64,000 nt of DNA from Lachnospiraceae bacterium (GTDB lineage: Bacteria; Bacillota; Clostridia; Lachnospirales; Lachnospiraceae): positions 6,262,001 through 6,326,000 of the forward strand of contig AP025576.1 of the NCBI GenBank assembly GCA_022845955.1. The letters are read 5' to 3'. This document shows, one piece after another, positions 8,140 through 52,331 of the stretch. The notes beneath the pieces were generated by a model, which was given only the letters and a program-made list of their open reading frames with translations, did not search any database and was not told where the DNA came from. Each line of letters begins with the position of its first letter. The first letter of the stretch is position 1. The position numbers and the translations under genes were made by a program.

Positions 8140-9861
8140 TTATTTATACTTCGCATCATAAGCCGCCTGATAAATGGACTTCATATTTCCTGCGCCCTTC
8201 ACTTCCAGTTCCTTCAGATAAGCATCCCACTGCGCATCAACATCCAGCGCGCCTGTGATAAAGCTGGCTGCCATTTCTCTCACATAAGACAGCACAACGC
8301 TCTCTGAATTTGCCAGCTCTGTCGCCTGTGCCTCGTCATATACCAGAGGGGGCAGGCAAACGCTCATATCAGGATGATACGCCTGCATATAATCTCTTGT
8401 ATCAAAGCCGAGCCGATACTCCATATTCGTATCATAATCGCCGGTCTGATACTGACCATAACGGTATTCCGGTGCATCCGGTGTGTCACATCTTAAGCCA
8501 ATAGCCCTCCAGCAGTAATTCTGTTCATCATTCCAGTTAACTCCGTCAATGAATACGGAAACCTCGGAAGCGGTGCCGGAATTGAGATCCACAGCATCCG
8601 CAGGAATATCCCCTTCACCGGGAACGATTTTTTCCCAGCTCACACCCTCTTCCCCAAAGCTCTTCCTAAAGCAAAGATCTCTGTTATACAGCTCAACTCC
8701 CCAACGGAAAGCTGCTTCAGGATTTTCGCAGGCTGCAGTAATCACAAATGCAGTGGGGTTTATCTGGTTATAGGGCATCCAGGTAGACACTCTGCCCCCT
8801 TCTCCTTCGATCGGAGACAGCGCCACATAATCGCTCCATAAAGAGGCATCGTCGCCAGGCACTGTATTAGGCGTACCGCAGGGGAAACATCCTACCAGAG
8901 AACCGCTGTCCCCCGAGGCGGCAACCTGCCTTGCCTGATCCATGTTGATAATCAGACTTTGGTCATAATACAAACCCTGCTCATAAAGGGAATTCAGCCA
9001 CTTCATTGCATTTTTCCAACCATCCTGCATGTATGAAAACTCTACGGTCCCATCTTCTAAATAAACAAAATTATTATCAGGCGCCGTATAAACAAAAGGA
9101 TTCGTCAGCCAGCCTGAAAGAGGATCCGAATGCCATCCTCCGTCAAAGGTAAGCATGGGAATCTCATCGGCAATACCATTACCGTTTGGATCCTTCTCCT
9201 TAAAAGCTACCAGCATGGCTTCAAATTCTTCCACTGTCGCGGGGACTTCCAATCCAAGGTTATCCAGCCATTTCTTGTTCACCCACATTTTGCTGGAATC
9301 TTCACAGTGCACACATTTCTCAATAAAAGGGAGCGCATAGATATTGCCGTCGCTCATCGTCATAACATCATTCAGGCCCGGAACCTTGGAGGCAATATCC
9401 TGATATACCGCGCCGTACTGCGCAATATAATTATTCAGGGGAAGAAATGCCCCCTGCGTCCCGTATACCTGCTGCTGTGTCTGGGTAATATTGCAGTTTA
9501 AATAAATATCAGGCATATCTCCGCTTGAGAGGGAAATATTTACCTTATCGGCCAGACTCTCAAGAGGTGCAACCACCCAGTTGATCTTAACATTTGTCTG
9601 TTCTTCCCACCATTTGGTAAAATCATTCGTAGTGATATCCATCACGTTCGGATTGCCCGGAACCATAACGGTTAATTCGACAGATTCCTCTACAATGGGA
9701 AATGTCCCTTCAGGACTCACAGGCCCATCCGTTTTTACGGATACCTCTGCGGTGTCCTGACTTGTAGCTGCCGCCTCATTTACCGCTTTGTTCCCGCATC
9801 CGGAGAGGACAACAATAGATGCACATATGATACACAGAACAGAACATAACTTCTTTTTCAT
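8140..9861 (-). CDS. extracellular solute-binding lipoprotein (LipO/family 1) of cluster A
   Basis: 573 residues. It has a lipoprotein signal peptide (MKKKLCSVLCIICASIVVLSGCG) with lipobox LSGC. The mature protein has features of the large family-1 binding proteins linked to LplB/YtcP permeases, such as ELTVMVPGNPNV, FTKWWEEQTNVKINW and SSGDMPDIYLN near the N-terminus, and an EF-hand-like DPNGNGIADEIP segment. It should capture an oligosaccharide outside the membrane and deliver it to the two permeases encoded just upstream (62-base gap). It is followed by a strong terminator. The ligand is unknown; a uronic-acid or fucose-bearing oligosaccharide would fit the enzymes below. Confidence 0.88.
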   Translation of the reverse strand: MKKKLCSVLCIICASIVVLSGCGNKAVNEAAATSQDTAEVSVKTDGPVSPEGTFPIVEESVELTVMVPGNPNVMDITTNDFTKWWEEQTNVKINWVVAPLESLADKVNISLSSGDMPDIYLNCNITQTQQQVYGTQGAFLPLNNYIAQYGAVYQDIASKVPGLNDVMTMSDGNIYALPFIEKCVHCEDSSKMWVNKKWLDNLGLEVPATVEEFEAMLVAFKEKDPNGNGIADEIPMLTFDGGWHSDPLSGWLTNPFVYTAPDNNFVYLEDGTVEFSYMQDGWKNAMKWLNSLYEQGLYYDQSLIINMDQARQVAASGDSGSLVGCFPCGTPNTVPGDDASLWSDYVALSPIEGEGGRVSTWMPYNQINPTAFVITAACENPEAAFRWGVELYNRDLCFRKSFGEEGVSWEKIVPGEGDIPADAVDLNSGTASEVSVFIDGVNWNDEQNYCWRAIGLRCDTPDAPEYRYGQYQTGDYDTNMEYRLGFDTRDYMQAYHPDMSVCLPPLVYDEAQATELANSESVVLSYVREMAASFITGALDVDAQWDAYLKELEVKGAGNMKSIYQAAYDAKYK

Positions 9862-9923
9862 ATATTCTTTTCCTTCCTATAATTATCTTATAACGGTAAA
9901 GTCCCTTTGCAGTTACCTTATCT

Positions 9924-10853
9924 TTATCCTTTGACAGAACCGATCATGACACCCTTTACCAGGTATTTCTGGACAAAAGGGTACATAATAAATACCGGAA
10001 CGGAAGAAACCACTATCAGTGCATATTTCATAAGAATCTGCATTTCCAGACGCTTCATCATTTCCTGCACTCCGGTACCCGACAATGACGTCATATCAAT
10101 CTGAGAGGAAATCAGGATATCTCTCAGAAAAATCTGCAAGGGGTATTTCTTCTCCTCATTCAGATAAAGCATAGCGCTGAAATAGTTATTCCAATGGCCG
10201 ATTGCATACAGCAAAATCATGACGGCCAGGATTGTTTTCGACAGCGGCAGGACTACCGACCACAGGAATCTGCGGTTGGTACACCCGTCAATCTGGGCAG
10301 CTTCCAGCAATTCGTCAGGTATCGTGGACTGAAAAAATGTCTTCATTACAATTACGTTATATACGCTGATTAATCCGGGAAGCCATAACGACCAGGCCGT
10401 ATTAATTAAGTGAAGGTTCTTTACCAGCATATAATTGGGAATCAGGCCTCCGGAAAACATCATCGTGAATACCAGAAGCTTCATTACCGCCCCTCTGCCT
10501 TTTAAATCCTTTCTGGAAAGCGGATATGCCATCAATATGGTAAAGACAACGTTCAAAAACGTCCCCACAAAGGTATAATATATGGTATTCCGGTAACCTA
10601 CCCAGATATCGCTGTAACCATATACCATCTCATATGCCTCCAGGTTGAACTCCTTAGGGAAAATACCTACCTGGCCGGTTTGAACCATTTTCCCCGAACT
10701 GAAAGAACAGGAAATTACATTCATAAGCGGGAAGGCTACAATAATCAATGCCAGTAAGGCAATCACATATACCAGAATATCAAATACAAGATCGATTCCT
10801 TTGCTTTTGATCCGGCTGTTCTTCGCCGGCCTGCCCGTCCTTACTTTTACCAT
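9924..10853 (-). CDS. carbohydrate ABC permease, YtcP/MalG type
   Basis: 309 residues with six predicted membrane segments. The permease EAA loop ELLEAAQIDGCTNRRFLWSVVLPLSK lies near residue 200, and the end is VKGVMIGSVKG, typical of the YtcP group. It overlaps the upstream permease by seven bases, so the pair is translated together and should form the heterodimeric channel. No ATP-binding subunit gene is in the window. A shared ATPase (MsmK/UgpC type) is the known solution in this family. Confidence 0.9.
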   Translation of the reverse strand: MVKVRTGRPAKNSRIKSKGIDLVFDILVYVIALLALIIVAFPLMNVISCSFSSGKMVQTGQVGIFPKEFNLEAYEMVYGYSDIWVGYRNTIYYTFVGTFLNVVFTILMAYPLSRKDLKGRGAVMKLLVFTMMFSGGLIPNYMLVKNLHLINTAWSLWLPGLISVYNVIVMKTFFQSTIPDELLEAAQIDGCTNRRFLWSVVLPLSKTILAVMILLYAIGHWNNYFSAMLYLNEEKKYPLQIFLRDILISSQIDMTSLSGTGVQEMMKRLEMQILMKYALIVVSSVPVFIMYPFVQKYLVKGVMIGSVKG

Positions 10854-11755
10854 AGAGATTCTTCACCCACCTTCCTTGCAAGCACATTTGCGCTGATGAT
10901 GAGAATCATCCCCACCAATGACTGGAACAGTCCGATCGCTGTCGGATAAGAATAATTGGCAATGGGAGAGGCGAGTCCAATCTTATACACATAAGTATCA
11001 ATAACCTCTGACGCCCTGATATTCAAATCATTCTGCATCAGGTAGATCTTTTCAAATCCTGTTGTCAGGACAGATCCCATATTCATTATCATTAAAATAA
11101 TGATAGTTGACTTGATACTTGGCAGATCAATATGCCATACTCTCCTGAACTTATTGGCCCCGTCCACGACAGCTGCTTCATGCAAAGTAGGATCCACTCC
11201 TGACAAGGTTGCAATATAAATAATTGCATTATATCCGGTGTACTGCCAGATCCCGGACCACACATATACATGTGCGAACTTATTCGGATCTGCCAGAAAA
11301 TCCACCTGCGCAAAGCCCATGGAACGAAGCACACTGTTTACCGGCCCGAAATCTATGGCAAGGAAATTAAGCAGGATACTGACCATAACCGTTGTGGAAA
11401 TAAAATATGGTGCATAGGTAATGGTCTGTACCACCTTTTTAAATTTTAGATGCCTTAAATAGTTCAGGACCAGAGCCAGAACGATCGGAAAAATCATTCC
11501 TGCAAATAAACTGTAAATGCTGATGGATAAGGTATTTCCAAGAAGCTTCGGAAGCTCACTGGAGTTAAAAAATTGATTGAAATATTTCAGTCCAACCCAT
11601 GGACTGTCATACATTCCCTTAAATACATTGTAATCACGGAATGCCATCTGCGCTCCGTACATAGGAATATACTTAAAAATAATAACGTAGGCCACAGGGA
11701 ATATCAGCATTACATATAAATCCCAGTTTTTAGAAAGCTTCTGTTTTCTCCCCAG
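10847..11755 (-). CDS. carbohydrate ABC permease, LplB/YteP type; probable CTG start
   Basis: About 302 residues from the proposed start. Six membrane segments are predicted. The EAA loop is LHEAAVVDGANKFRRVWHIDLP and the C-terminus is ARKVGEESLW, the hallmark of LplB-type permeases. An ATG at 11791 is in frame, but the only good ribosome site (AAGGAGG) lies downstream of it, eight bases before an in-frame CTG at 11755. The following residues (GRKQKLSKNWDLYVM) match where homologues begin, so a CTG start is proposed. It is first in the transporter operon, below a 260-base divergent regulatory region. Confidence 0.85.
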   Translation of the reverse strand: MGRKQKLSKNWDLYVMLIFPVAYVIIFKYIPMYGAQMAFRDYNVFKGMYDSPWVGLKYFNQFFNSSELPKLLGNTLSISIYSLFAGMIFPIVLALVLNYLRHLKFKKVVQTITYAPYFISTTVMVSILLNFLAIDFGPVNSVLRSMGFAQVDFLADPNKFAHVYVWSGIWQYTGYNAIIYIATLSGVDPTLHEAAVVDGANKFRRVWHIDLPSIKSTIIILMIMNMGSVLTTGFEKIYLMQNDLNIRASEVIDTYVYKIGLASPIANYSYPTAIGLFQSLVGMILIISANVLARKVGEESLW

Positions 11756-11860
11756 TTGGAATCCCTCCTTCCTTAAGACAAGTTGAAGCAAGCGGCCGCT
11801 TGACTAAGGCAATCATAATCCATATACCAGATAAATTAAACAAACAATATTCGTTATACG

Positions 11861-11895
11861 CAAACTTTATATGCTTTTTGCCCAAACTTTGAAGC
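11861..11895. promoter_or_regulatory. candidate AraC operator: two CAAACTTT direct repeats
   Basis: CAAACTTTATATGC (11861-11874) and CAAACTTTGAAGC (11883-11895) are direct repeats with a 22-base period, two helical turns. That is the usual layout of the tandem half-sites bound by AraC-type regulators. They lie between the divergent permease gene and the AraC gene at 12016. No clear consensus promoter faces the permease, as expected for a gene that needs an activator. Confidence 0.4.
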
Positions 11896-11935
11896 ATACA
11901 CTTTCCCGCAAAAGCAAACATTAACCATACATTAT

Positions 11936-11964
11936 TTGTACAAGGCCATACCTTGTGATAAAAT
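11936..11964 (+). promoter_or_regulatory. probable promoter of the cluster A regulator
   Basis: TTGTAC, 17 bases, TAAAAT, ending 51 bases before the ATG at 12016. Confidence 0.55.
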
Positions 11965-12015
11965 TCATAAAGAAAGCGGAATTAACAGGTAAATAAGTAA
12001 TCAAAGGCGGACAAA

Positions 12016-14292
12016 ATGAAAACATGGAAAAGAAAGAATGCAACCGATAAAAAAATCAGTTTTTTCCTGAAGTATTTCCTGTCCTATCTTCTTATCTTTT
12101 TTATCCCTCTGTTTCTGGCTTTTTTTACCTATTCCACTGCCAGCCGCATTATCTATGCCCAATGCAGTGAACATATCAAAAACAATCTGAAACAGGCCTG
12201 CAATATATCCGACATCCGCCTTCAGGAATTAAAATCTATCCCGCTCACCCTGAAAACCAACGAAAATATAATCAGGTTCCATCAGGAATGGGCACAGGCT
12301 GATTCACAGGGAAGCATTATTACAGCCTATAAGGTCAGCCGAAGCATACCCAAATATGAAGTCATTAATTCCACGCTGGATACGATCCGAATATATTTTG
12401 GAAAACCTTCCTGCTGTTTTCTGTTAGGATCCAATAATGCAATGCGTTATACGGACAAGAAAGAATTCTGGGAGGAAATGGACATGAACTACTCCGACTT
12501 CCACCAATATCTTCAAGGCCGCCATTTTTATGAGGAATTTCTCTTCCTGCCTTCCTCAACGCCTTATATTCAGAACGTATATTATCTTCTGAATCTGAAC
12601 AATTTTTATCAGGAATATTATTCCTCCGTCATCCTGATAAAACTGTCCAACCAGTTCCTTACAAATTTGCTGAAGGATATTACGGTAAATGGTTATGGGA
12701 CTTCCTTTATCCTTACTGAAGATAACCAACTGATTTCATACTTCCAGGGAACGGATTCCTATCAGCTTACCAATGAAAACCTCTCCTTCATCATACAGGC
12801 AGGACAGACGGCGAAGGACGGCAGTTTTTCCTTTGAAGGCCACCAGGTAAATCGTATCCGTTCCGACTTGAACGGCTGGACTTACTATTCCATGATCCCC
12901 CAGTCAATTATACTTGAAGACCTGACTTCCATGCGTCACACAATCATGATCGCAACTGTTGCCGTCATGATCGTCGGGCTTCTGACCTGTTATCTGCTTA
13001 CCCGACACCAGTCCAGGCCTTTGAAAAAAATAGCAGAGGCACTGACTTCCCTCTATGAATATGGATATTTTGATTCCACCGACCAGTTTATGTTTCTGGA
13101 AAATGCCGTTTCCACTCTTATCGACCGCAGCAGCTCTTTTCAGGAATCCTACGATAATGAAATACTGCGTATGCTCTTTCTCGGCGAAAATACGCTTTCC
13201 GCATCCTTCCAAGAAAAGCTGCTGCACAGTTCCATCCAGTTGGAAGACAATCTTTATGTTACCGGATATCTTCACATACATAATCTGAAAAGTACGCTTA
13301 CCCTTTCCGGGCAGGTGATGGCCGGCCATCTGAAGGAAGCCTGGTATGGGGAGATATATCCTCTTTCGATTGATGAAAGCAATATGATTTTTCTTGCGGT
13401 GCACAAAAAGAAGCTGGCAGACAGCACCTTCCTTATCTACACAAAAGAAATCCTGACAAGTCTGAGTACCAGGCTTCTTGAAGAAACCAACTGTCATATT
13501 GATTTCTTCCTCAGCGAACCCATGCGCTGCTATCAAAATGTCCATCAAAGCTATGAGCAGTGTAAAAAGCTGGCACAGAATGTGATTAAAAAAAGCGATG
13601 TCCACGTATATACTCCGGAAGACCTTCCTCCTTATCAGCAAATCTACTGCTATACCATCGATCATGAAATCCGGCTGATACAGCTAATCAAGCACGGAAC
13701 GGCTGAAAAACTTGGTGAATTTTTACAGGAACTCTATACGGAAAATTTTGATCGTTTACTTTTATCGGAAGGAATGAAGCAAGATTTGATTAATGCAATA
13801 CAAAAAAGTATACAACGTGATCTTACTCTCTACCAGAGTGATAAACTCATCAGCAGAATTTTTTCTGAAATCAACCGGGTAAATTCCTTTGATTCCCTGC
13901 GCACTCTTCTTCTGCAGTTAAGGGAAGCCATTCAGACACATAACAATAACACTGCAAAATCCGATTCTGAAAAAATCAGGTATTCCATCCTGGAATATAT
14001 GCAGCTTAATTATGCTAACAGCAATCTTAATCTGCAATATATGTGCGCAGACCTGGGAATCAATGAAACCACCGCAGCCAAATTTTTTCAGGAATTGGGA
14101 AGCTCCTTTTCGTCTTATCTTGAAAAAGTAAGAATTGAGGCTGCCTGTGCTATGCTTTCCCAAAAGGAGCTGACGATAAAATCCATTTCAGAAAAAACCG
14201 GGTATTGTAGTGATGTATCTTTCCGCCGTGCATTTAAAAGAGTATTGGGGATATCTCCCAGCGAATTCATCCGCAGATCCGTTCTTCCATAA
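12016..14292 (+). CDS. membrane-sensor AraC-family regulator (YesN-like) of cluster A
   Basis: 758 residues. A transmembrane segment near residues 20-42 is followed by an extracellular Cache-like sensor of about 260 residues and a second membrane segment near 310 (IMIATVAVMIVGLLTCYLL). A cytoplasmic linker leads to a C-terminal AraC double helix-turn-helix (residues about 655-755) with LQYMCADLGINETTAAKFF and SISEKTGYCSDVSFRRAFKRVLGISPSEF. The known family senses extracellular sugar or sugar-loaded binding protein and activates the adjacent ABC operon. It is divergent from the transporter, has its own promoter, and converges on the GH38 gene. Ribosome site AAAGGCGG. Confidence 0.85.
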   Translation: MKTWKRKNATDKKISFFLKYFLSYLLIFFIPLFLAFFTYSTASRIIYAQCSEHIKNNLKQACNISDIRLQELKSIPLTLKTNENIIRFHQEWAQADSQGSIITAYKVSRSIPKYEVINSTLDTIRIYFGKPSCCFLLGSNNAMRYTDKKEFWEEMDMNYSDFHQYLQGRHFYEEFLFLPSSTPYIQNVYYLLNLNNFYQEYYSSVILIKLSNQFLTNLLKDITVNGYGTSFILTEDNQLISYFQGTDSYQLTNENLSFIIQAGQTAKDGSFSFEGHQVNRIRSDLNGWTYYSMIPQSIILEDLTSMRHTIMIATVAVMIVGLLTCYLLTRHQSRPLKKIAEALTSLYEYGYFDSTDQFMFLENAVSTLIDRSSSFQESYDNEILRMLFLGENTLSASFQEKLLHSSIQLEDNLYVTGYLHIHNLKSTLTLSGQVMAGHLKEAWYGEIYPLSIDESNMIFLAVHKKKLADSTFLIYTKEILTSLSTRLLEETNCHIDFFLSEPMRCYQNVHQSYEQCKKLAQNVIKKSDVHVYTPEDLPPYQQIYCYTIDHEIRLIQLIKHGTAEKLGEFLQELYTENFDRLLLSEGMKQDLINAIQKSIQRDLTLYQSDKLISRIFSEINRVNSFDSLRTLLLQLREAIQTHNNNTAKSDSEKIRYSILEYMQLNYANSNLNLQYMCADLGINETTAAKFFQELGSSFSSYLEKVRIEAACAMLSQKELTIKSISEKTGYCSDVSFRRAFKRVLGISPSEFIRRSVLP

Positions 14293-42218: not shown

Positions 42219-43121
42219 TTATTTTTCTTCACAATAAGGAATCCTAAAATAATCTAAATATGCTTTAAACTGATCCTGTGCCGTCAAACAAGTATCTCTA
42301 AGATAACCTTTCTCTATGTTCCATTCATGAAGCCCCCGATAATAAAACATTTTTAGACTCTCGTCAATAATAAAAGGAACAACATTATTTTTCAGGCATT
42401 CTTTTAGTAATAGCAGTCTTCCAACACGCCCATTTCCATCTTGAAAAGGATGGATACGTTCAAATTTTACATGAAAATCCAAAATTTCATCCATCGATTT
42501 TATCTTCGATTCATTGTAGCTCTTTAACAGTTTTTGTATCTCTTCCTGTACTCGTTCAGGAGCTGTTGTTTCCAATCCTCCAACCTCGTTTGGCAATTTT
42601 TTATAGCCGCCTACAACAAACCAATCTTTACGACTGTCACTTGTTCCATTTTTTAGCACGGCATGAAGATCCTTTATAAACTTTTCCGTCAACCGATACG
42701 CTGCCTGATCGATTACCATATCAATACATCTAAAATGATTTGCAGTTTCCACAATATCATCCACATTAAATGTTTCGTTCGTTACACCTATTGTATTAGT
42801 TTCATAAATATAGCGTGTTTGATCATGCGTCAGTCTGCTCCCTTCTATGTGATTAGAATTGTAGGTAAATTCAATTTGTATTTTATGATAAATTCCTCCT
42901 GATACCTTTCCTGCTTTTTCCTGTTTTAAAATATCCAGTAATGTGTCTGGTACCCTCTGTTTTTTATTTATACGATTAGGACGTACAGCAGTTTCTGGAA
43001 TGTTCCATGTTTTTCCCGTTAAAAAGGCATCTGGTATCCGTCCCTGCAAACAATAGTTGCGCACTGTACGTTCCGCTATATTCCATCTCTTTGCCATTTC
43101 CGCCACTGATATATATTTCAT
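42219..43121 (-). CDS. Fic-domain protein with N-terminal helix-turn-helix
   Basis: About 300 residues. The first 50 form a MerR/excisionase-like DNA-binding domain (ISVAEMAKRWNIAERTVRNYCLQGRIP). The Fic motif is HPFQDGNGRVGR near residue 200, complete. An inhibitory-type segment S-N-H-I-E-G near residue 85 places the protein in the self-inhibited Fic class. Fic enzymes transfer AMP to protein side chains. The start at 43121 follows GGAGGAAAG; the frame to 43163 is longer but has no site. Base composition is clearly more AT-rich than the sugar genes, and it lies beside a mobile-element scar, both signs of transfer. A toxin-like or defence role is possible. Confidence 0.82.
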   Translation of the reverse strand: MKYISVAEMAKRWNIAERTVRNYCLQGRIPDAFLTGKTWNIPETAVRPNRINKKQRVPDTLLDILKQEKAGKVSGGIYHKIQIEFTYNSNHIEGSRLTHDQTRYIYETNTIGVTNETFNVDDIVETANHFRCIDMVIDQAAYRLTEKFIKDLHAVLKNGTSDSRKDWFVVGGYKKLPNEVGGLETTAPERVQEEIQKLLKSYNESKIKSMDEILDFHVKFERIHPFQDGNGRVGRLLLLKECLKNNVVPFIIDESLKMFYYRGLHEWNIEKGYLRDTCLTAQDQFKAYLDYFRIPYCEEK

Positions 43122-43485
43122 ATGCTTTCCTCCATATAAGTTATTATACACTATTATCGGCAATATTCCAAATTTTTATATTATAATTTATTTTTTTTGC
43201 CGATATAGGCATAAAATGTCTCATTAAAATATGTACTTCTATTAAGCATATTTTCTTGTTTACTATTTTAAACCAAATAGGTATTATGAATTTTCTCATG
43301 AAACATTATTATATTTGGAATATCATACCATCTAATAAACACATTCTATAATACAAATAGTTATCCCTCAAATATATCAAACGTTCCTTTAAAACCGTAA
43401 TTGCGCAATTTGACTTTCTTTATCCTCAATGTTTCGAATTTTTTCTTTAAATTCCGTAAAATACCACACTGTATCCGGTAAAATG

Positions 43486-47138: not shown

Positions 47139-47405
47139 TTATTGTATTCCGTTTTGAGACTGGTGTAAATACTTTTCTCGTGTTGCCAGTCCGCCTCTGA
47201 TATGGCGCTCCGATTTATTGACGTCCAGTACTTTCCTGGCTTCCCTGGCTAATGCAGGATTAATCTGAGACAGGCGTTCCGTAACATCCTTATGTACGGT
47301 AGACTTACTGATGCCGAACTGCTTCGCGGTCTGGCGTACAGTGGCATTGCAGTCAATAATATAGTTGGCAATATCGATTGCTCGCTCCTCGATATAATCT
47401 TTCAC
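47139..47405 (-). CDS. spoIIID: sporulation transcription regulator SpoIIID, GTG start
   Basis: 88 residues, the usual size. The sequence is very close to the family: IEERAIDIANYIID, helix-turn-helix TVRQTAKQFGISKSTVHKDVTERL, and LARE(A)RKVLDVNKSERHIRGG. SpoIIID controls mother-cell genes between sigma-E and sigma-K. The start is GTG after GGGGGAAATCC. A sigma-E-like promoter lies just upstream. It shows that the host can form spores. Confidence 0.95.
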   Translation of the reverse strand: MKDYIEERAIDIANYIIDCNATVRQTAKQFGISKSTVHKDVTERLSQINPALAREARKVLDVNKSERHIRGGLATREKYLHQSQNGIQ

Positions 47406-47499: not shown

Positions 47500-48435
47500 T
47501 TATATTTCCGCCCATTCCTCATAAGCGCCTTCCCATGTTTTCCGTGTAAAAGGACGTATGGGATCTCCGGTACGCTGCGCGTATCTTTCTGCATATTCCA
47601 GGAAATAATACAGGTGCTCCCTTCTGGTGCGCAGCTCCCGGATACGGATGCCGCTCCAGACAGGAACCCTTTTGTACTGGTCGCTCCTACTGAATTTCTT
47701 AATGAAACCTTCGATATCATAAGGAACTCTCCGCTCTTCCACCGAAATTCCTCCCTTTCCGGTACTGATCAGAGTATAGGGTGCTCCCGGTTCACAGCTA
47801 TCCATAGGCAGGCCGCAGGAACCGGGATTTATAAATACCTTTTTCCCGCTCTCAATAAACCATTGTATGTGAGAATGCCCGAAAAGATATACGCCGTCCT
47901 CCAGCTTCCCACACTGTTCCTGAAATTCTTGGTTTTCATTCAGATGGCCCCGGATATCTTTCAGAAGCCGCCTATGCTTCAACTCCCCTTCTCTATACAT
48001 AAGAGGAATAGTCGGGCAGCTGAATTTACCCAGTTCCGCTTTTCCAATAAAATTCCCGGAGGAATGAGCCATATGGAAACCAATCCCGCTCTCTGCATCC
48101 CGGAAACTCATTTTTTCAGGAAGTCCCTGTAAAAATATTCTGCTTTCCGCGCTGAGGGCATGGGCACACCAGCAGGAAATATGCATCTGGCCACCTTCCC
48201 AGCGCGCCTCATCTTCTCCCTGCATTTTTTCGATATACTGTTCCTCATTCCCCCGGATGACACAGGCATGTTCCAGACCGGCTATCCGTCGTACCACCTG
48301 TTCCGGGAATGGCAGGCTCAGGCAGTAATCCCCGGTAAATAGGTACGCATCTGCCGGCTGCCGGGCGGCATCCGCCAAAACACCCTCCAAAGCATCCAGA
48401 TTCCCATGGACATCGGATATCACCGCATATTTCAT
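47500..48435 (-). CDS. calcineurin-like metallophosphoesterase
   Basis: About 311 residues. Metal-binding motifs in order: ISDVHGN (residue 7), FTGDYC (33), IRGNEEQ (60, where GNHD/E is usual), HMAHSS, LFGHSHIQW (about 186) and NPGSCG. The last 80 residues form a helical C-terminal extension. Substrates in this family range from phosphodiesters to protein phosphates. The ATG overlaps the stop of the helical protein (ATGA), so it belongs to the operon of the Mrr-STAND gene. It may be a housekeeping enzyme or part of a defence unit. Confidence 0.82.
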   Translation of the reverse strand: MKYAVISDVHGNLDALEGVLADAARQPADAYLFTGDYCLSLPFPEQVVRRIAGLEHACVIRGNEEQYIEKMQGEDEARWEGGQMHISCWCAHALSAESRIFLQGLPEKMSFRDAESGIGFHMAHSSGNFIGKAELGKFSCPTIPLMYREGELKHRRLLKDIRGHLNENQEFQEQCGKLEDGVYLFGHSHIQWFIESGKKVFINPGSCGLPMDSCEPGAPYTLISTGKGGISVEERRVPYDIEGFIKKFSRSDQYKRVPVWSGIRIRELRTRREHLYYFLEYAERYAQRTGDPIRPFTRKTWEGAYEEWAEI

Positions 48436-48833
48436 ATATCCTCCTCCGCCCCTTCCCCTGTCAGACACCTATAGAAATCCTCCGCTTCCATCTCATCCAG
48501 CCGTCCGCTTCCAACCTGCATCTTGAGGATTTTCTCAACCGCCCCGTCACCCAGGGCGTTGATTTGGGCCACCACCTCCATCATCTCCCTGCCGGACTCC
48601 TCCGTCATTTTTTCAAACAGTTCTTCCGTAACCCGCAGCATCTCGGATGCCTTTTCCGTTATTTTCCCATCCGAAAACCCGTTCCAGGCTCCCGGATCCA
48701 GTTCCTCCAGCGTTTCGCCGTAGTCTTCTTCCATATTTCCCAGGGAAATCCAAAAATTTCTAAGATAAGAATATTTCCCAAATGCCAGTCTCAGCTGTTC
48801 TTCCAGTTGCTGTAACTCTTTATCTCCTCCCAT
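48432..48833 (-). CDS. small helical protein between STAND and phosphoesterase genes
   Basis: About 133 residues from ATG at 48833 (MGGDKELQQLEEQLRLAFGKYSYLRNFW). It is acidic and almost all helix, with heptad-like spacing in TEKASEMLRVTEELFEKMTEES. It overlaps the upstream STAND gene by 43 bases and the downstream gene by four, so all three are coupled. The open frame to 48911 has no better start. No family recognised. A partner or regulator of one of the two enzymes is the simplest guess. Confidence 0.55.
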   Translation of the reverse strand: MGGDKELQQLEEQLRLAFGKYSYLRNFWISLGNMEEDYGETLEELDPGAWNGFSDGKITEKASEMLRVTEELFEKMTEESGREMMEVVAQINALGDGAVEKILKMQVGSGRLDEMEAEDFYRCLTGEGAEEDI

Positions 48834-51511
48834 AACTCTCTTACCCTTTCCGCGATTCCTGATTCCTTGAGAACCTCTTCCTTCATCCGTGCCGTGTCCA
48901 GAAGCCAGCACGTTTCATTCCAATGCTCCGTTTCTTCCAGGCCGCCCTCTGTCCGAAGCATGCTCATTTGCTCCGCAGAAAAACAATCCGGCAGGATGTC
49001 CCATACCGCCACGTCTGCGACCGCATACAGCAGCTCCCACAGGATGTCTTTTCCGCCGGATCCTCCCAATACCTCTCCCCGGCGGCTCACATAGCATTCC
49101 AGGCTTATGCAGTTAAGAATCTGTCTGCACAAATCCATTCCCTCCGCATTCCCCCTATCTTCGCAGAATTTCCGTGCCAGCGGCTGCAGGGCATACCGTA
49201 TCACGGCATCCCTGTCCAGTTCCACCAGACCCTCCAGCATCTCCGTCTCCCGGGGTGCAAACTGCCGGGCAAAGGAATCCCAATCCGTATCTATAAACCA
49301 TAACAGGCACAGGTACTCTTTTCCCCGCTGGGAGCTGCCTGCAAAAAAATGCAGTTCGGAGATAAAAAACAGGCCCGGATTCACCTGGCAGTACCATTGA
49401 TTCCATCTGCGCAGGAATCCGCAGGCGCATAAAGCCCGGATAATTTCCTCTCCCTGACCGGCAAAATACCGTTCCGCCTTCTCCTCCAGTTCCTTCCCGG
49501 ACAGCATAACAGCATCTCTTTTTTCATATAGCTGCCGGCTTAATGCCTGAAGATCATAGGGCTGCAGATGTAAGGGCCGAAGGCTCCGGATAAAACATTC
49601 CAGCTCCGTTTCCCCGCCTCCTGTCATCTCCGTCAGATAAGAAAAAATAGCCGCCGCCGCTTCTTCCTTATTCCGATAGAACCCGTATTCAATAGCTCTG
49701 CCCGCAGCTACGGGAAATTCTTTTAAATCTTCCGTACTGACATCTGCCGAATCCCTTTTTATCCTGCTTAACAGCTCCCGGAATTTGTCAGTAAACCATT
49801 TCCGGAAGGGCTCTCCTGCCGGATTGCGGTATACCTGCAGCAGTTCATAATAGGAATAATAGTCCCGGTTATATTCAAAAAAGCACCGGTACTCCAGGTC
49901 AATGGCCCGTTCCATCACCCGCCGGCAGAACGCCCCGTCCGTCTGGGTAAGGGCACATAACGAAAGCAGCTTCCGGCAGCATTCAAAATAGCAGCAGCTC
50001 CTCAGCAGCAATTCCCTGTATTGGACAAAGTTCCGGCTTATGTACTGATGGATAAAGTCATTCGCAGAAGGATTCTGAAAACGCACCCGCAGGGCATTTC
50101 CCGCTTCCGGTACCGTCTCCGTATAAATCGCTGTCTTTTCCAGTTCCGCAATAACCCGTTCCGATTCCCGGAACAGGCTTCCCTCCTTTTCACCGGCCAT
50201 GGCGGCCTGATAACATTGGTGGGCACGCTCCAGGTTCACGGGCAGGGGCATCAAATCCAGGATGATGAAGAATACCCGGGCCTCTTCGGAAAGGTTCTGG
50301 AATATCTGTTCCCAAAAATCCTTCGGCTCCTGCAGGTATTGCAGCATTCTCTGCGCACATTGCTCCGGCCTGTCCCCGGGCTGTACAGATCCCAGGTACA
50401 TCTGGATAATGCGGGGATTATAATAAGGAGATAATACGACCTGATCATGAATCCGGTACAGCGCTTTCATCTGTTCCCAGGTGAGGGAAGATCTCCGCAG
50501 ATGTCCCAGATAGATCCGCACCATATCCGTAAGGGAGTAGGAATGCAGCCTGCATTCCAGCTTATACCTTTCCAGGAGGGCACGCAGCTCTTCATTCTGT
50601 CTCATCCCCTGCTCCAGCACATATTCCCTGGTAGTCAGGATAAGGACATAATCATTACGCAGCCGCACCGATTCGATCAGCCGCGCCAGCCTCCGCTCCT
50701 CCTTCCCCGCTCCATAGGCATTAAGAAAATTACTTCCCCAGAAATCGTCATAGATCACGACCTTTTTCCCGGGCATTTCCTGCGCCTTGTACAGATCACC
50801 CACGGACTCCGCCCACAAATAGGTGTCAAAACCTCTGCGGGACAGCCAGTATATGGCAAGCTGGTTGGCTAATGTCGTCTTTCCGATACCCGGCTCCCCG
50901 GACAGGATGATCGCTCGGCCGGCTGCAAGAAGCTTCCTGGCTTCCTCATATACGGCTGTTTCCACAAAAAACTCCGCATTCTGTCTGGCTTTCTCCCATT
51001 CCAGCCTGGATTCCGCCAGCAATTCCCCGTTTACCACATCCCTTACGGTATTCTTCAGCACCTCCGTATTCCGGATCCACAGCTTATAATACTTCTCCTC
51101 CACCCTGGCATAGCCAGGCTCCCCGCTCCCCAGATAATTATTCAGATCCTTTCCCGTTACGATATCGTTGTCGGCAAGGATAAACGGATGGAACAATTCC
51201 CTGATTTTCTTTTTCTGCTCCGGGCTTACATCCCGGGCCAGCACGAGGATATACCGGTCCGGCTTTATCCGATCCGCCTTTTTCTTTTCTTCCCTTAGCT
51301 CCTTCCAGCGGATACCGCCGTCATTGGCCCAGCGCTTTGCCTGCAGGATAATACACTTCCCTTCCGGCGTGATACAGCGGGCGTCTATTCCCTGATCCGG
51401 CCCTTCCCGGAAGGCTTCCATATCTATCTTCTCCCGCACCTGTATCATATCCCTGGCAAACTCCTGGAACTCCAGAGGCTCCAGCAGCTGGTGGAAATCA
51501 TAGTTCTTCAT
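48791..51511 (-). CDS. Mrr-like nuclease fused to STAND NTPase; defence candidate
   Basis: 906 residues. Residues about 1-115 resemble an Mrr/PD-(D/E)xK nuclease: FQEFARDMIQ, GPDQGIDARC, and CIILQAKRW with the Q-A-K motif. A P-loop NTPase follows: Walker A LSGEPGIGKTTLANQ near residue 205, Walker B KKVVIYDDFWG near 250, and a sensor strand YVLILTTREYVLEQG near 300, typical of nSTAND ATPases. Residues 400-906 are helical repeats, probably sensing a partner. Proteins of this build (for example Avs-type) recognise phage proteins and then cut DNA. That role is inferred. No sensor family is identified. Confidence 0.75.
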   Translation of the reverse strand: MKNYDFHQLLEPLEFQEFARDMIQVREKIDMEAFREGPDQGIDARCITPEGKCIILQAKRWANDGGIRWKELREEKKKADRIKPDRYILVLARDVSPEQKKKIRELFHPFILADNDIVTGKDLNNYLGSGEPGYARVEEKYYKLWIRNTEVLKNTVRDVVNGELLAESRLEWEKARQNAEFFVETAVYEEARKLLAAGRAIILSGEPGIGKTTLANQLAIYWLSRRGFDTYLWAESVGDLYKAQEMPGKKVVIYDDFWGSNFLNAYGAGKEERRLARLIESVRLRNDYVLILTTREYVLEQGMRQNEELRALLERYKLECRLHSYSLTDMVRIYLGHLRRSSLTWEQMKALYRIHDQVVLSPYYNPRIIQMYLGSVQPGDRPEQCAQRMLQYLQEPKDFWEQIFQNLSEEARVFFIILDLMPLPVNLERAHQCYQAAMAGEKEGSLFRESERVIAELEKTAIYTETVPEAGNALRVRFQNPSANDFIHQYISRNFVQYRELLLRSCCYFECCRKLLSLCALTQTDGAFCRRVMERAIDLEYRCFFEYNRDYYSYYELLQVYRNPAGEPFRKWFTDKFRELLSRIKRDSADVSTEDLKEFPVAAGRAIEYGFYRNKEEAAAAIFSYLTEMTGGGETELECFIRSLRPLHLQPYDLQALSRQLYEKRDAVMLSGKELEEKAERYFAGQGEEIIRALCACGFLRRWNQWYCQVNPGLFFISELHFFAGSSQRGKEYLCLLWFIDTDWDSFARQFAPRETEMLEGLVELDRDAVIRYALQPLARKFCEDRGNAEGMDLCRQILNCISLECYVSRRGEVLGGSGGKDILWELLYAVADVAVWDILPDCFSAEQMSMLRTEGGLEETEHWNETCWLLDTARMKEEVLKESGIAERVRELWEEIKSYSNWKNS

Positions 51512-51611: not shown

Positions 51612-52331
51612 TCACCGGAAAGGTAGATCCTCCTCATCACTATCATAATCCACAGCAAATTCCAGTTCTTCCTCATCCATCCCCATGAAATATTCTTCTA
51701 TCTCTCTTTCATATGTTTCTAAGGCCTTATTTATTTTTTTCTCCGCCTTTTTATTTTTACAAGCCTTATACAATGCGGAAGCGGCTACAAAAATAATCTC
51801 ATTTTCATCCGTACATACCATATCGTCCGCTATATATCTTTTAACCATATCTTCCGCCCCTGCCCAGTCTCTCACACCGATTCGGACATAGATAAGAGCT
51901 GCGGCAGCGGCCATATTCCCGCTGTCCTGTTTATACCACTCCTCACAGTATGCAAGGGCTTCTTCCTTTTTCCCCTGTGATCCCAGTGCAGCTGAAATAC
52001 GAAAATATAAATCGGAGGGATCCTCTTCCTTCCATGCAAACAAAGTAAGCAATTTCCGGCAGACGGATTCCAGATCCGCATATCTGTCCGCCATATCCAG
52101 TTCATCCAGATAATCCTCCAGCCAATTTTCCACGTCGTACTCATAGTCGGTATCCTCATCCAAACAATACAGCTCCGGTGCAAAAGCAGCATCTGTTTCA
52201 CGGCCCTGGCTGATAATCGTAAGCAGGAGATTATAACACGCATCCCATACTTCCATACCGGAATTCACCCGAACCATGTCCATGTAACATTCTGCTGTAA
52301 GGGTATTAAATTTTTCCCATAATTTTTTCAT
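51612..52331 (-). CDS. acidic TPR-like protein
   Basis: 239 residues. Helix pairs of TPR type are visible: SDLYFRISAALGSQGKKEEALAYCEEWYKQ, then GNMAAAAALIYVRIGVRDWAGAEDMVKRYI, then EIIFVAASALYKACKNKKAEKKINKALE. The ends are very acidic (AVDYDSDEEDLPF). It may hold protein partners. It is 100 bases above the Mrr-STAND gene on the same strand. A -10 box TATAAT lies about 33 bases before the ATG. Whether it belongs with the STAND operon is unclear. Confidence 0.6.
   Translation of the reverse strand: MKKLWEKFNTLTAECYMDMVRVNSGMEVWDACYNLLLTIISQGRETDAAFAPELYCLDEDTDYEYDVENWLEDYLDELDMADRYADLESVCRKLLTLFAWKEEDPSDLYFRISAALGSQGKKEEALAYCEEWYKQDSGNMAAAAALIYVRIGVRDWAGAEDMVKRYIADDMVCTDENEIIFVAASALYKACKNKKAEKKINKALETYEREIEEYFMGMDEEELEFAVDYDSDEEDLPFR

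What the first reader, a model, noticed from the sequence alone, without database searches (positions are those of the whole stretch)
47500..51511. Coupled Mrr-STAND, small helical protein and phosphoesterase operon
Three genes overlap (43 and 4 bases). The first is built like phage-sensing STAND nucleases (PD-D/ExK, NTPase, helical sensor). The second is an unknown helical protein and the third a metallophosphoesterase with GNEE in place of GNHD/E. As a set this could be an undescribed defence unit.
Basis: partly seen in the sequence, partly recalled or inferred. Interest (0 to 1): 0.6.

Follow-up and report, generated by a model that had tools for sequence, protein, structure and literature searches.

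The report
Avs-like Mrr-nSTAND3 operon with accessories
A gut bacterium carries a probable virus-sensing, DNA-cutting defence protein of an already catalogued candidate family, encoded together with a small helical protein that accompanies it in one other genus and a phosphatase-like enzyme found beside it only in this genus.

Summary
The three overlapping genes are real (overlaps 43 and 4 bp), and the order recurs in Eisenbergiella tayi with coding frames under purifying selection. Gene 1 (906 aa) is an Mrr-type nuclease plus nSTAND3 NTPase plus fast-evolving, mostly helical C-terminus. It matches the PADLOC candidate PDC-S73 (E 9.9e-93); its model's top PDB matches include Avs4 and Avs5, at low TM-scores. 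Gene 2 (133 aa, helical) follows long-form relatives of gene 1 in E. tayi and Hungatella hathewayi, but not in Paenibacillus; in E. tayi it has an in-frame stop. Of 16 gene 1 loci readable downstream, gene 2 is in 3 and gene 3 in 2. Gene 3 is a YfcE/SapH-like metallophosphoesterase; in 26 other loci its relatives have neither partner within the stretch held. GNEE is a trait of its subfamily. A third Eisenbergiella keeps only a 3' scrap of gene 3 at the site. Most likely: a ligand-triggered abortive-infection nuclease of Avs type, with gene 2 a dispensable partner and gene 3 a late accessory. Defence by gene 1 is inferred; a new three-gene unit is not shown. No activity was tested.

The parts
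48791..51511 (-). gene 1: Mrr-type PD-(D/E)xK nuclease domain (about residues 1-165), nSTAND3 NTPase (182-339), then a mostly helical C-terminal region read as the sensor; 906 aa
   Evidence: motifs GxDxGID (D43), QAK (57-59), GEPGIGKTT (205-213), DDF (255-257) present; motif roles recalled
48432..48833 (-). gene 2: small helical protein, 133 aa, overlaps gene 1 by 43 bp
   Evidence: relatives in E. tayi (in-frame TGA) and H. hathewayi
47500..48435 (-). gene 3: YfcE/SapH-like calcineurin-superfamily metallophosphoesterase with a C-terminal extension, 311 aa; ATGA overlap with gene 2
   Evidence: motifs DVHGN, GD, GN, H124, GHSH present; motif roles recalled
47139..47405 (-). SpoIIID gene, downstream boundary of the slot (not part of the unit)
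   Evidence: Pfam SpoIIID 1.9e-42; 97% and 99% identical in G004 and E. tayi
51612..52331 (-). TPR-like gene upstream; not found in the E. tayi locus, so not counted as part of the unit

Best explanation
Gene 1 is a single-chain, Avs-like STAND nuclease. Inferred mechanism: the resting protein is held inactive by its NTPase core; an invader-made ligand (or another infection cue) is bound by the fast-evolving C-terminus; the nSTAND3 core then binds nucleotide and oligomerises; the clustered Mrr-type domains cut DNA and the infected cell stops or dies before phage release. Gene 2 is a co-translated helical partner of the long C-terminus, a sensor adaptor or modulator rather than a required antitoxin. 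Gene 3 is a metal-dependent phosphoesterase, probably on a nucleotide or small phosphodiester, recruited downstream in the Eisenbergiella lineage, tuning the response or only sharing the transcript. Shown: gene structure, motifs, homology, distribution, selection, loss at one site. Inferred: every biochemical and cellular step, and co-transcription.
For: nSTAND3 5.6e-36 and Mrr_cat 7.9e-5. PDC-S73 9.9e-93. Catalytic and Walker motifs kept in 9 of 9 aligned relatives. Foldseek ranks Avs4 first (8dgf_B, E 8e-9) and EfAvs5 fourth (9jap_A, 3.1e-6); nSTAND3 is reported in Avs5 (PMC12931631, passages). Nuclease and NTPase parts are 82-83% identical between the two Eisenbergiella species, the C-terminus 53%, as expected of a sensor. 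Relatives sit beside genes that match defence models: SpbK, SspB, Ppl, BrxP/DndC-like, Old, NERD-helicase and McrBC (Pfam). Gene 2 lies next to long-form gene 1 in two genera. E. tayi gene 1 keeps its motifs although gene 2 has a stop, against an essential antitoxin.
Against: No activity or phage data. The Foldseek matches to Avs4/Avs5 have low TM-scores (0.18-0.22 of the query) and large rmsd; VIA-align's 50 listed rows are AAA+ proteins with no Avs among them; a profile search of PDB sequences showed no Avs chain in the 60 listed of 89 and matched mostly the P-loop region. Model residues 541-669 are below pLDDT 50. The gene 1-gene 2 link rests on two genera; in Paenibacillus the long form has no gene 2. 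Of ten window neighbours scanned only one, a Fic-like gene 4.3 kb from gene 3, matches a defence model, so the window is not a dense defence island.
Confidence: 0.55

Rival explanations
1. Gene 1 alone is the defence system; genes 2 and 3 are passengers on the same transcript.
For: In 13 of the 16 gene 1 loci readable downstream (six plasmid loci, taken from 38 matching records, among them) neither gene 2 nor gene 3 was found. Gene 2 is broken in E. tayi. Gene 3 relatives have no gene 1 or gene 2 relative nearby in 26 of 26 other loci.
Against: Gene 2 recurs in H. hathewayi at 32-34% identity, still overlapping gene 1. Genes 2 and 3 are under purifying selection. The ATGA coupling of genes 2 and 3 is kept in E. 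tayi.
Confidence: 0.3
2. The three genes are one dedicated, undescribed defence unit in which gene 3 makes, removes or reads a nucleotide signal that controls gene 1 and gene 2 links the two.
For: Same order and tight overlaps in two species; block absent except for a gene 3 scrap in a third; calcineurin-superfamily phosphoesterases are described in NTP-dependent conflict systems (PMC7159879, passages).
Against: No triad outside Eisenbergiella in what was searched. H. hathewayi has genes 1 and 2 without gene 3. The gene 3 scrap fits equally well with gene 3 having been at the site before genes 1 and 2.
Confidence: 0.12
3. A toxin-antitoxin-like set: gene 1 toxic, gene 2 (or 3) its neutraliser.
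For: Overlapping small gene next to a predicted nuclease.
Against: E. tayi keeps an apparently intact gene 1 with gene 2 stopped at codon 53, unless the stop is a sequencing error or the downstream part is restarted; most relatives examined have no partner.
Confidence: 0.03

Closest known systems
PDC-S73 (PADLOC phage-defence candidate)
   Same: Residues 1-552 align to 1-548 of 752 model positions, E 9.9e-93; the Paenibacillus relative covers model positions 1-744.
   Different: The model match stops at residue 552 of 906; two overlapping extra genes follow. No paper naming PDC-S73 was found.
Avs4 (AVAST type 4; Mrr-STAND domain order recalled)
   Same: Mrr-type nuclease, STAND core, C-terminal sensor; best Foldseek match 8dgf_B. 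A paper states that Avs4 recognises the phage portal (PMC12724215, passages).
   Different: No Avs4 chain among the sequence matches shown (28; 60 of 89); 906 residues against 1,534-1,541 in the 8dgf chains; accessory genes.
Avs5 (SIR2-nSTAND3)
   Same: Same NTPase family nSTAND3/PF20720 (PMC12931631, passages); Foldseek 9jap_A and 9nc9.
   Different: Mrr-type nuclease instead of SIR2.
Spr1479/SapH-type phosphoesterase (3qfm; this identity and its activity are recalled) and YfcE
   Same: Gene 3 aligns to 3qfm (2.9e-9), 3rqz (4.8e-7) and YfcE (0.0025).
   Different: C-terminal extension of about 60 residues beyond the aligned part; Glu in the GNxE position; overlaps a STAND-nuclease operon.

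Membership tests
PDC-S73 (PADLOC) | Match to the family HMM across nuclease and NTPase | tested here: met
   E 9.9e-93, residues 1-552
PDC-S73 (PADLOC) | Single-gene candidate (my reading of the S label, recalled) | tested here: inconclusive
   13 of 16 readable loci have neither gene 2 nor gene 3; here two overlapping genes follow
PDC-S73 (PADLOC) | Protects against phage | not testable with these tools
   Candidate family; no paper naming it
STAND NTPases, nSTAND3 | nSTAND3 domain with Walker A, Walker B and TTRE motifs | tested here: met
   5.6e-36; GEPGIGKTT, DDF, TTRE
Avs4 | Mrr-type nuclease, STAND core and C-terminal helical region in this order | tested here: met
   this is likeness of build, not descent
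Avs4 | Sequence similarity to Avs4 | tested here: inconclusive
   No Avs model among the six PADLOC families listed at E<=1 (that the library holds Avs models is recalled); no Avs chain among 28 or the 60 shown of 89; Foldseek 8e-9 with TM 0.21; VIA rows uninformative
Avs4 | Activation by phage portal protein | not testable with these tools
   needs bench work
Avs5 | SIR2 effector | tested here: not met
   N-terminus is Mrr_cat; no SIR2 family among those listed
YfcE/SapH-like metallophosphoesterases | DxH, GD, GN, H, GHxH metal-ligand motifs (recalled) | tested here: met
   all five in gene 3
YfcE family proper (NCBIfam TIGR00040) | Score over the curated cut-off | tested here: not met
   48.3 bits against 56.25; so YfcE-like, not filed as YfcE

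The most novel reading that the evidence does not exclude
Genes 1-3 form an undescribed multi-protein branch of Avs-type immunity: the small helical protein is an obligate partner of the long sensor (a ligand adaptor), and the phosphoesterase hydrolyses a nucleotide that sets the activation threshold of the nSTAND3 core, so that infection is read through both a phage protein and a nucleotide cue.
Probability: 0.12. Interest if true: 0.65.

Novelty: new variant of a known kind. Interest (0 to 1): 0.33.

Why it matters
It gives a concrete gut-bacterial test case for a catalogued Mrr-nSTAND3 family that no paper found here names, and for how single-chain STAND immune proteins pick up accessory genes. 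It combines the build of Avs4 with the NTPase type of Avs5.

Tried and rejected
Single-sequence scan of genome contigs with gene 1 found nothing; the alignment scan found 8 loci. Viral contigs: none with A1 or with gene 2, one gene 1 relative with A6 (cut at the contig end), nine distant phosphoesterases, not followed. Gene 1 in phage records: 2 of 50,697, first half only, not followed. Gene 2 relative P0005 in plasmids: no match. The nSTAND3 HMM alone is unspecific: it rang in 200 of 200 genomes and in 14 of 14 controls (over its cut-off in 184 and 7), so only the six places above 100 bits were followed. Promoter and terminator counts are like those of shuffled sequence, so no promoter is claimed. 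GC of the three genes (0.50-0.53) is like that of GuaA, MATE and the kinase: no sign of recent import by composition. Gene 2 fold search: best E 0.59, so no fold is named. Rejected: that the upstream TPR gene belongs to the unit (not found in the E. tayi locus). Rejected: GNEE as a special feature. Two weak gene 2 relatives (G344 1.2e-5, G543 3.1e-5) have no gene 1 relative in the 10 and 18 kb held. In one search the queries P0001, P0002 and P0003 failed on a file error; one search repeated the comparison with all eight queries, and the counts in this report come. A translation was in the wrong frame and is not used. G063 carries both a gene 1 relative and a gene 3 relative, on separate short contigs (L040, L053); upstream of gene 3 there a divergent gene follows, so they are not in the order seen here.
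Full report
What is there. On the - strand lie gene 1 (48791-51511, 906 aa), gene 2 (48432-48833, 133 aa) and gene 3 (47500-48435, 311 aa), overlapping by 43 bp and by an ATGA of 4 bp. The window is at 6.26-6.33 Mb of a 7.29-Mb single-contig genome. The genus is Eisenbergiella: the same-genus genome G012 is E. tayi DSM 26961, because its contig C19 and NZ_MPDJ01000005.1 have the same length (898,530) and the same match.

Gene 1. Pfam gives Mrr_cat at residues 10-115 and nSTAND3 at 182-339; PADLOC gives PDC-S73 at 9.9e-93. In an alignment of nine relatives GxDxGxD, QxK, GxxGxGKT, DDF and TTRE are kept in 9 of 9. The structure model is best for about residues 1-540 (mean pLDDT 66.7 over all, under 50 at 541-669). 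Foldseek's first hit is Avs4 bound to a portal, then SAMD9, Avs4 again and EfAvs5, all with low TM-scores; VIA-align's 50 rows are AAA+ proteins without an Avs. I take this as 'built like Avs4/Avs5', not as membership.

Distribution of gene 1. Same genus: 3 of 13 genomes match, but one match is a weak 85-residue piece, so 2 of 13. Order: 3 of 392 genomes at E<=1e-30 with profile A6, the window's own genome included; the other two match only over the N-terminal half. Genome contigs: 8 loci; E. tayi (78% in the best segment), Hungatella hathewayi WAL-18680 (41%) and Paenibacillus monticola (43%) match over nearly the whole length, five proteobacterial ones over the first half only. Plasmids: 38 records, none over 80% of the query. 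The window's protein lacks an internal stretch of about 180 residues present in E. tayi and Hungatella.

Neighbours of gene 1. I compared 20 gene 1 loci by phmmer with the gene 2 and gene 3 proteins: the window, E. tayi (L007), H. hathewayi (L062), L039-L042, L063-L068, L130 and six of the 38 plasmid records (L140-L145). Four are cut near the 3' end of gene 1 (L040, L041, L067, L130). Of the other 16, gene 2 is in 3 (window, E. tayi, H. hathewayi) and gene 3 in 2 (window, E. tayi). A very diverged gene 2 could be missed by this comparison.

Gene 2. In H. hathewayi it is 32-34% identical and overlaps gene 1 by 8 bp; in E. tayi by 31 bp. Single-sequence search: 2 of 299 family genomes, own included. 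With a two-row profile: 3 of 392 order genomes, namely the own genome plus two weak orphans without a gene 1 relative nearby. E. tayi gene 2 has an in-frame TGA at codon 53, with conserved coding on both sides; that may be a recent loss or a sequencing error.

Gene 3. Related to 3qfm, 3rqz and YfcE, metal-ligand motifs present. Matches: 8 of 200 family genomes at 1e-10 and 18 of 295 order genomes (19 places) at 1e-30, own genome included in both. In 26 loci other than the window and E. tayi (18, 8) no gene 1 or gene 2 relative was found at E<=0.01 within the stretch held, often only 1.5 kb per side and sometimes cut by a contig end. More distant relatives occur elsewhere in the genus, in G000, G012, G004, G007, G002, G010 and G006. 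So gene 3 comes from a family usually found apart from gene 1.

The site. E. tayi has GuaA, MATE, SpoIIID, the three genes, then PTS genes and the histidine kinase; the window has the same without the PTS genes but with a TPR gene (family names from Pfam). The next relative, G004 (MATE 89% identical), has GuaA, MATE, SpoIIID and the PTS genes, and between SpoIIID and PTS only a scrap of gene 3, codons about 251-311. The simplest reading is that at least gene 3, and probably the whole set, was at this site in their common ancestor and was deleted in G004; exchange between species at the site is not excluded. The data do not tell whether genes 1-2 arrived before, with or after gene 3; H. hathewayi, with genes 1 and 2 only, suggests that 1-2 is the older pair.

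Selection. Window against E. tayi (NG86, dS near or above 1, so rough): dN/dS gene 1 0.14, gene 2 0.32, gene 3 0.15, against 0.046 for GuaA and MATE; dS is also higher (1.1-1.3 against 0.5-0.7), which I do not explain. Within gene 1: nuclease 83%, NTPase 82%, C-terminus 53% identity.

Defence context. Of nine neighbours of gene 1 relatives scanned with PADLOC (chosen by eye, so not a census), SpbK (2.4e-117), SspB (4e-59), Ppl (1.1e-72), BrxP/DndC-like (2.2e-81), Old (2e-200) and NERD-helicase (1.8e-126) models matched; two had no match, and an AAA gene had only weak restriction-enzyme matches. In Paenibacillus the pair directly upstream is an AAA_5 protein and an McrBC-family protein (2.8e-84). 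In the window itself, of ten neighbouring genes scanned, nine had no PADLOC match and one, 42219-43163, matched PDC-S04 (2.6e-110) and SoFic; it is 4.3 kb from gene 3, beyond SpoIIID, MATE and GuaA.

Literature. nSTAND3 in Avs5: PMC12931631 (passages). Avs4 and portal: PMC12724215 (passages). Calcineurin-type phosphoesterases in NTP-dependent conflict systems: PMC7159879 (passages). No paper naming PDC-S73. None held all of STAND, Mrr, phage, 'defence system' and phosphoesterase (British spelling only); three held metallophosphoesterase, 'anti-phage defense' and STAND (listing; outline with abstract of PMC12287305), none about such an operon by its title. The library lacks most subscription journals. 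The Avs4 domain order and the SapH activity are recalled.

Verdict. Gene 1 is very probably an Avs-like defence nuclease of an already catalogued candidate family; gene 2 is a plausible but dispensable partner of the long-sensor form; gene 3 is a lineage-specific addition. A dedicated three-gene system is possible but not shown.

Noticed in passing
window 42219-43163: A Fic-like gene matches the candidate defence family PDC-S04 (2.6e-110) and SoFic (1.3e-20), 4.3 kb from gene 3.
   Followed up: no
L007:7994-8413: E. tayi gene 2 carries an in-frame TGA at codon 53 with conserved coding on both sides.
   Followed up: partly
L082 (G012:C22:157070-158398): A MATE paralogue in the same E. tayi genome also has one in-frame TGA; two such cases may mean pseudogenes or assembly errors.
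   Followed up: no
L085:10130-10305 (G004): 3' scrap of gene 3 left at the otherwise empty site.
   Followed up: yes
L008:5127-5708 and 9782-12031: In H. hathewayi an HNH gene ends 22 bp before gene 1 and a UvrD-helicase gene follows gene 2 (Pfam).
   Followed up: partly
L063:3651-6931: Paenibacillus monticola: an AAA_5 gene and an McrBC-family gene directly upstream of the gene 1 relative.
   Followed up: partly
L007:3-1046: E. tayi, beyond GuaA: a SIR2_2-domain gene (5e-29) beside what read as transposase fragments.
   Followed up: partly
L140:2556-3928: Prosthecochloris plasmid: a diversity-generating retroelement (Avd and reverse transcriptase) 2 kb upstream of the gene 1 relative.
   Followed up: no
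window 51612-52331: TPR-like gene of lower GC (0.43) than its neighbours, not found in the E. tayi locus.
   Followed up: partly
L130:5977-8319: An IMG/VR contig carries a 780-aa gene 1 relative at its end.
   Followed up: partly
L142:5998-8335: Priestia plasmid: the nuclease and NTPase parts of the gene 1 relative are annotated as two adjacent genes.
   Followed up: no
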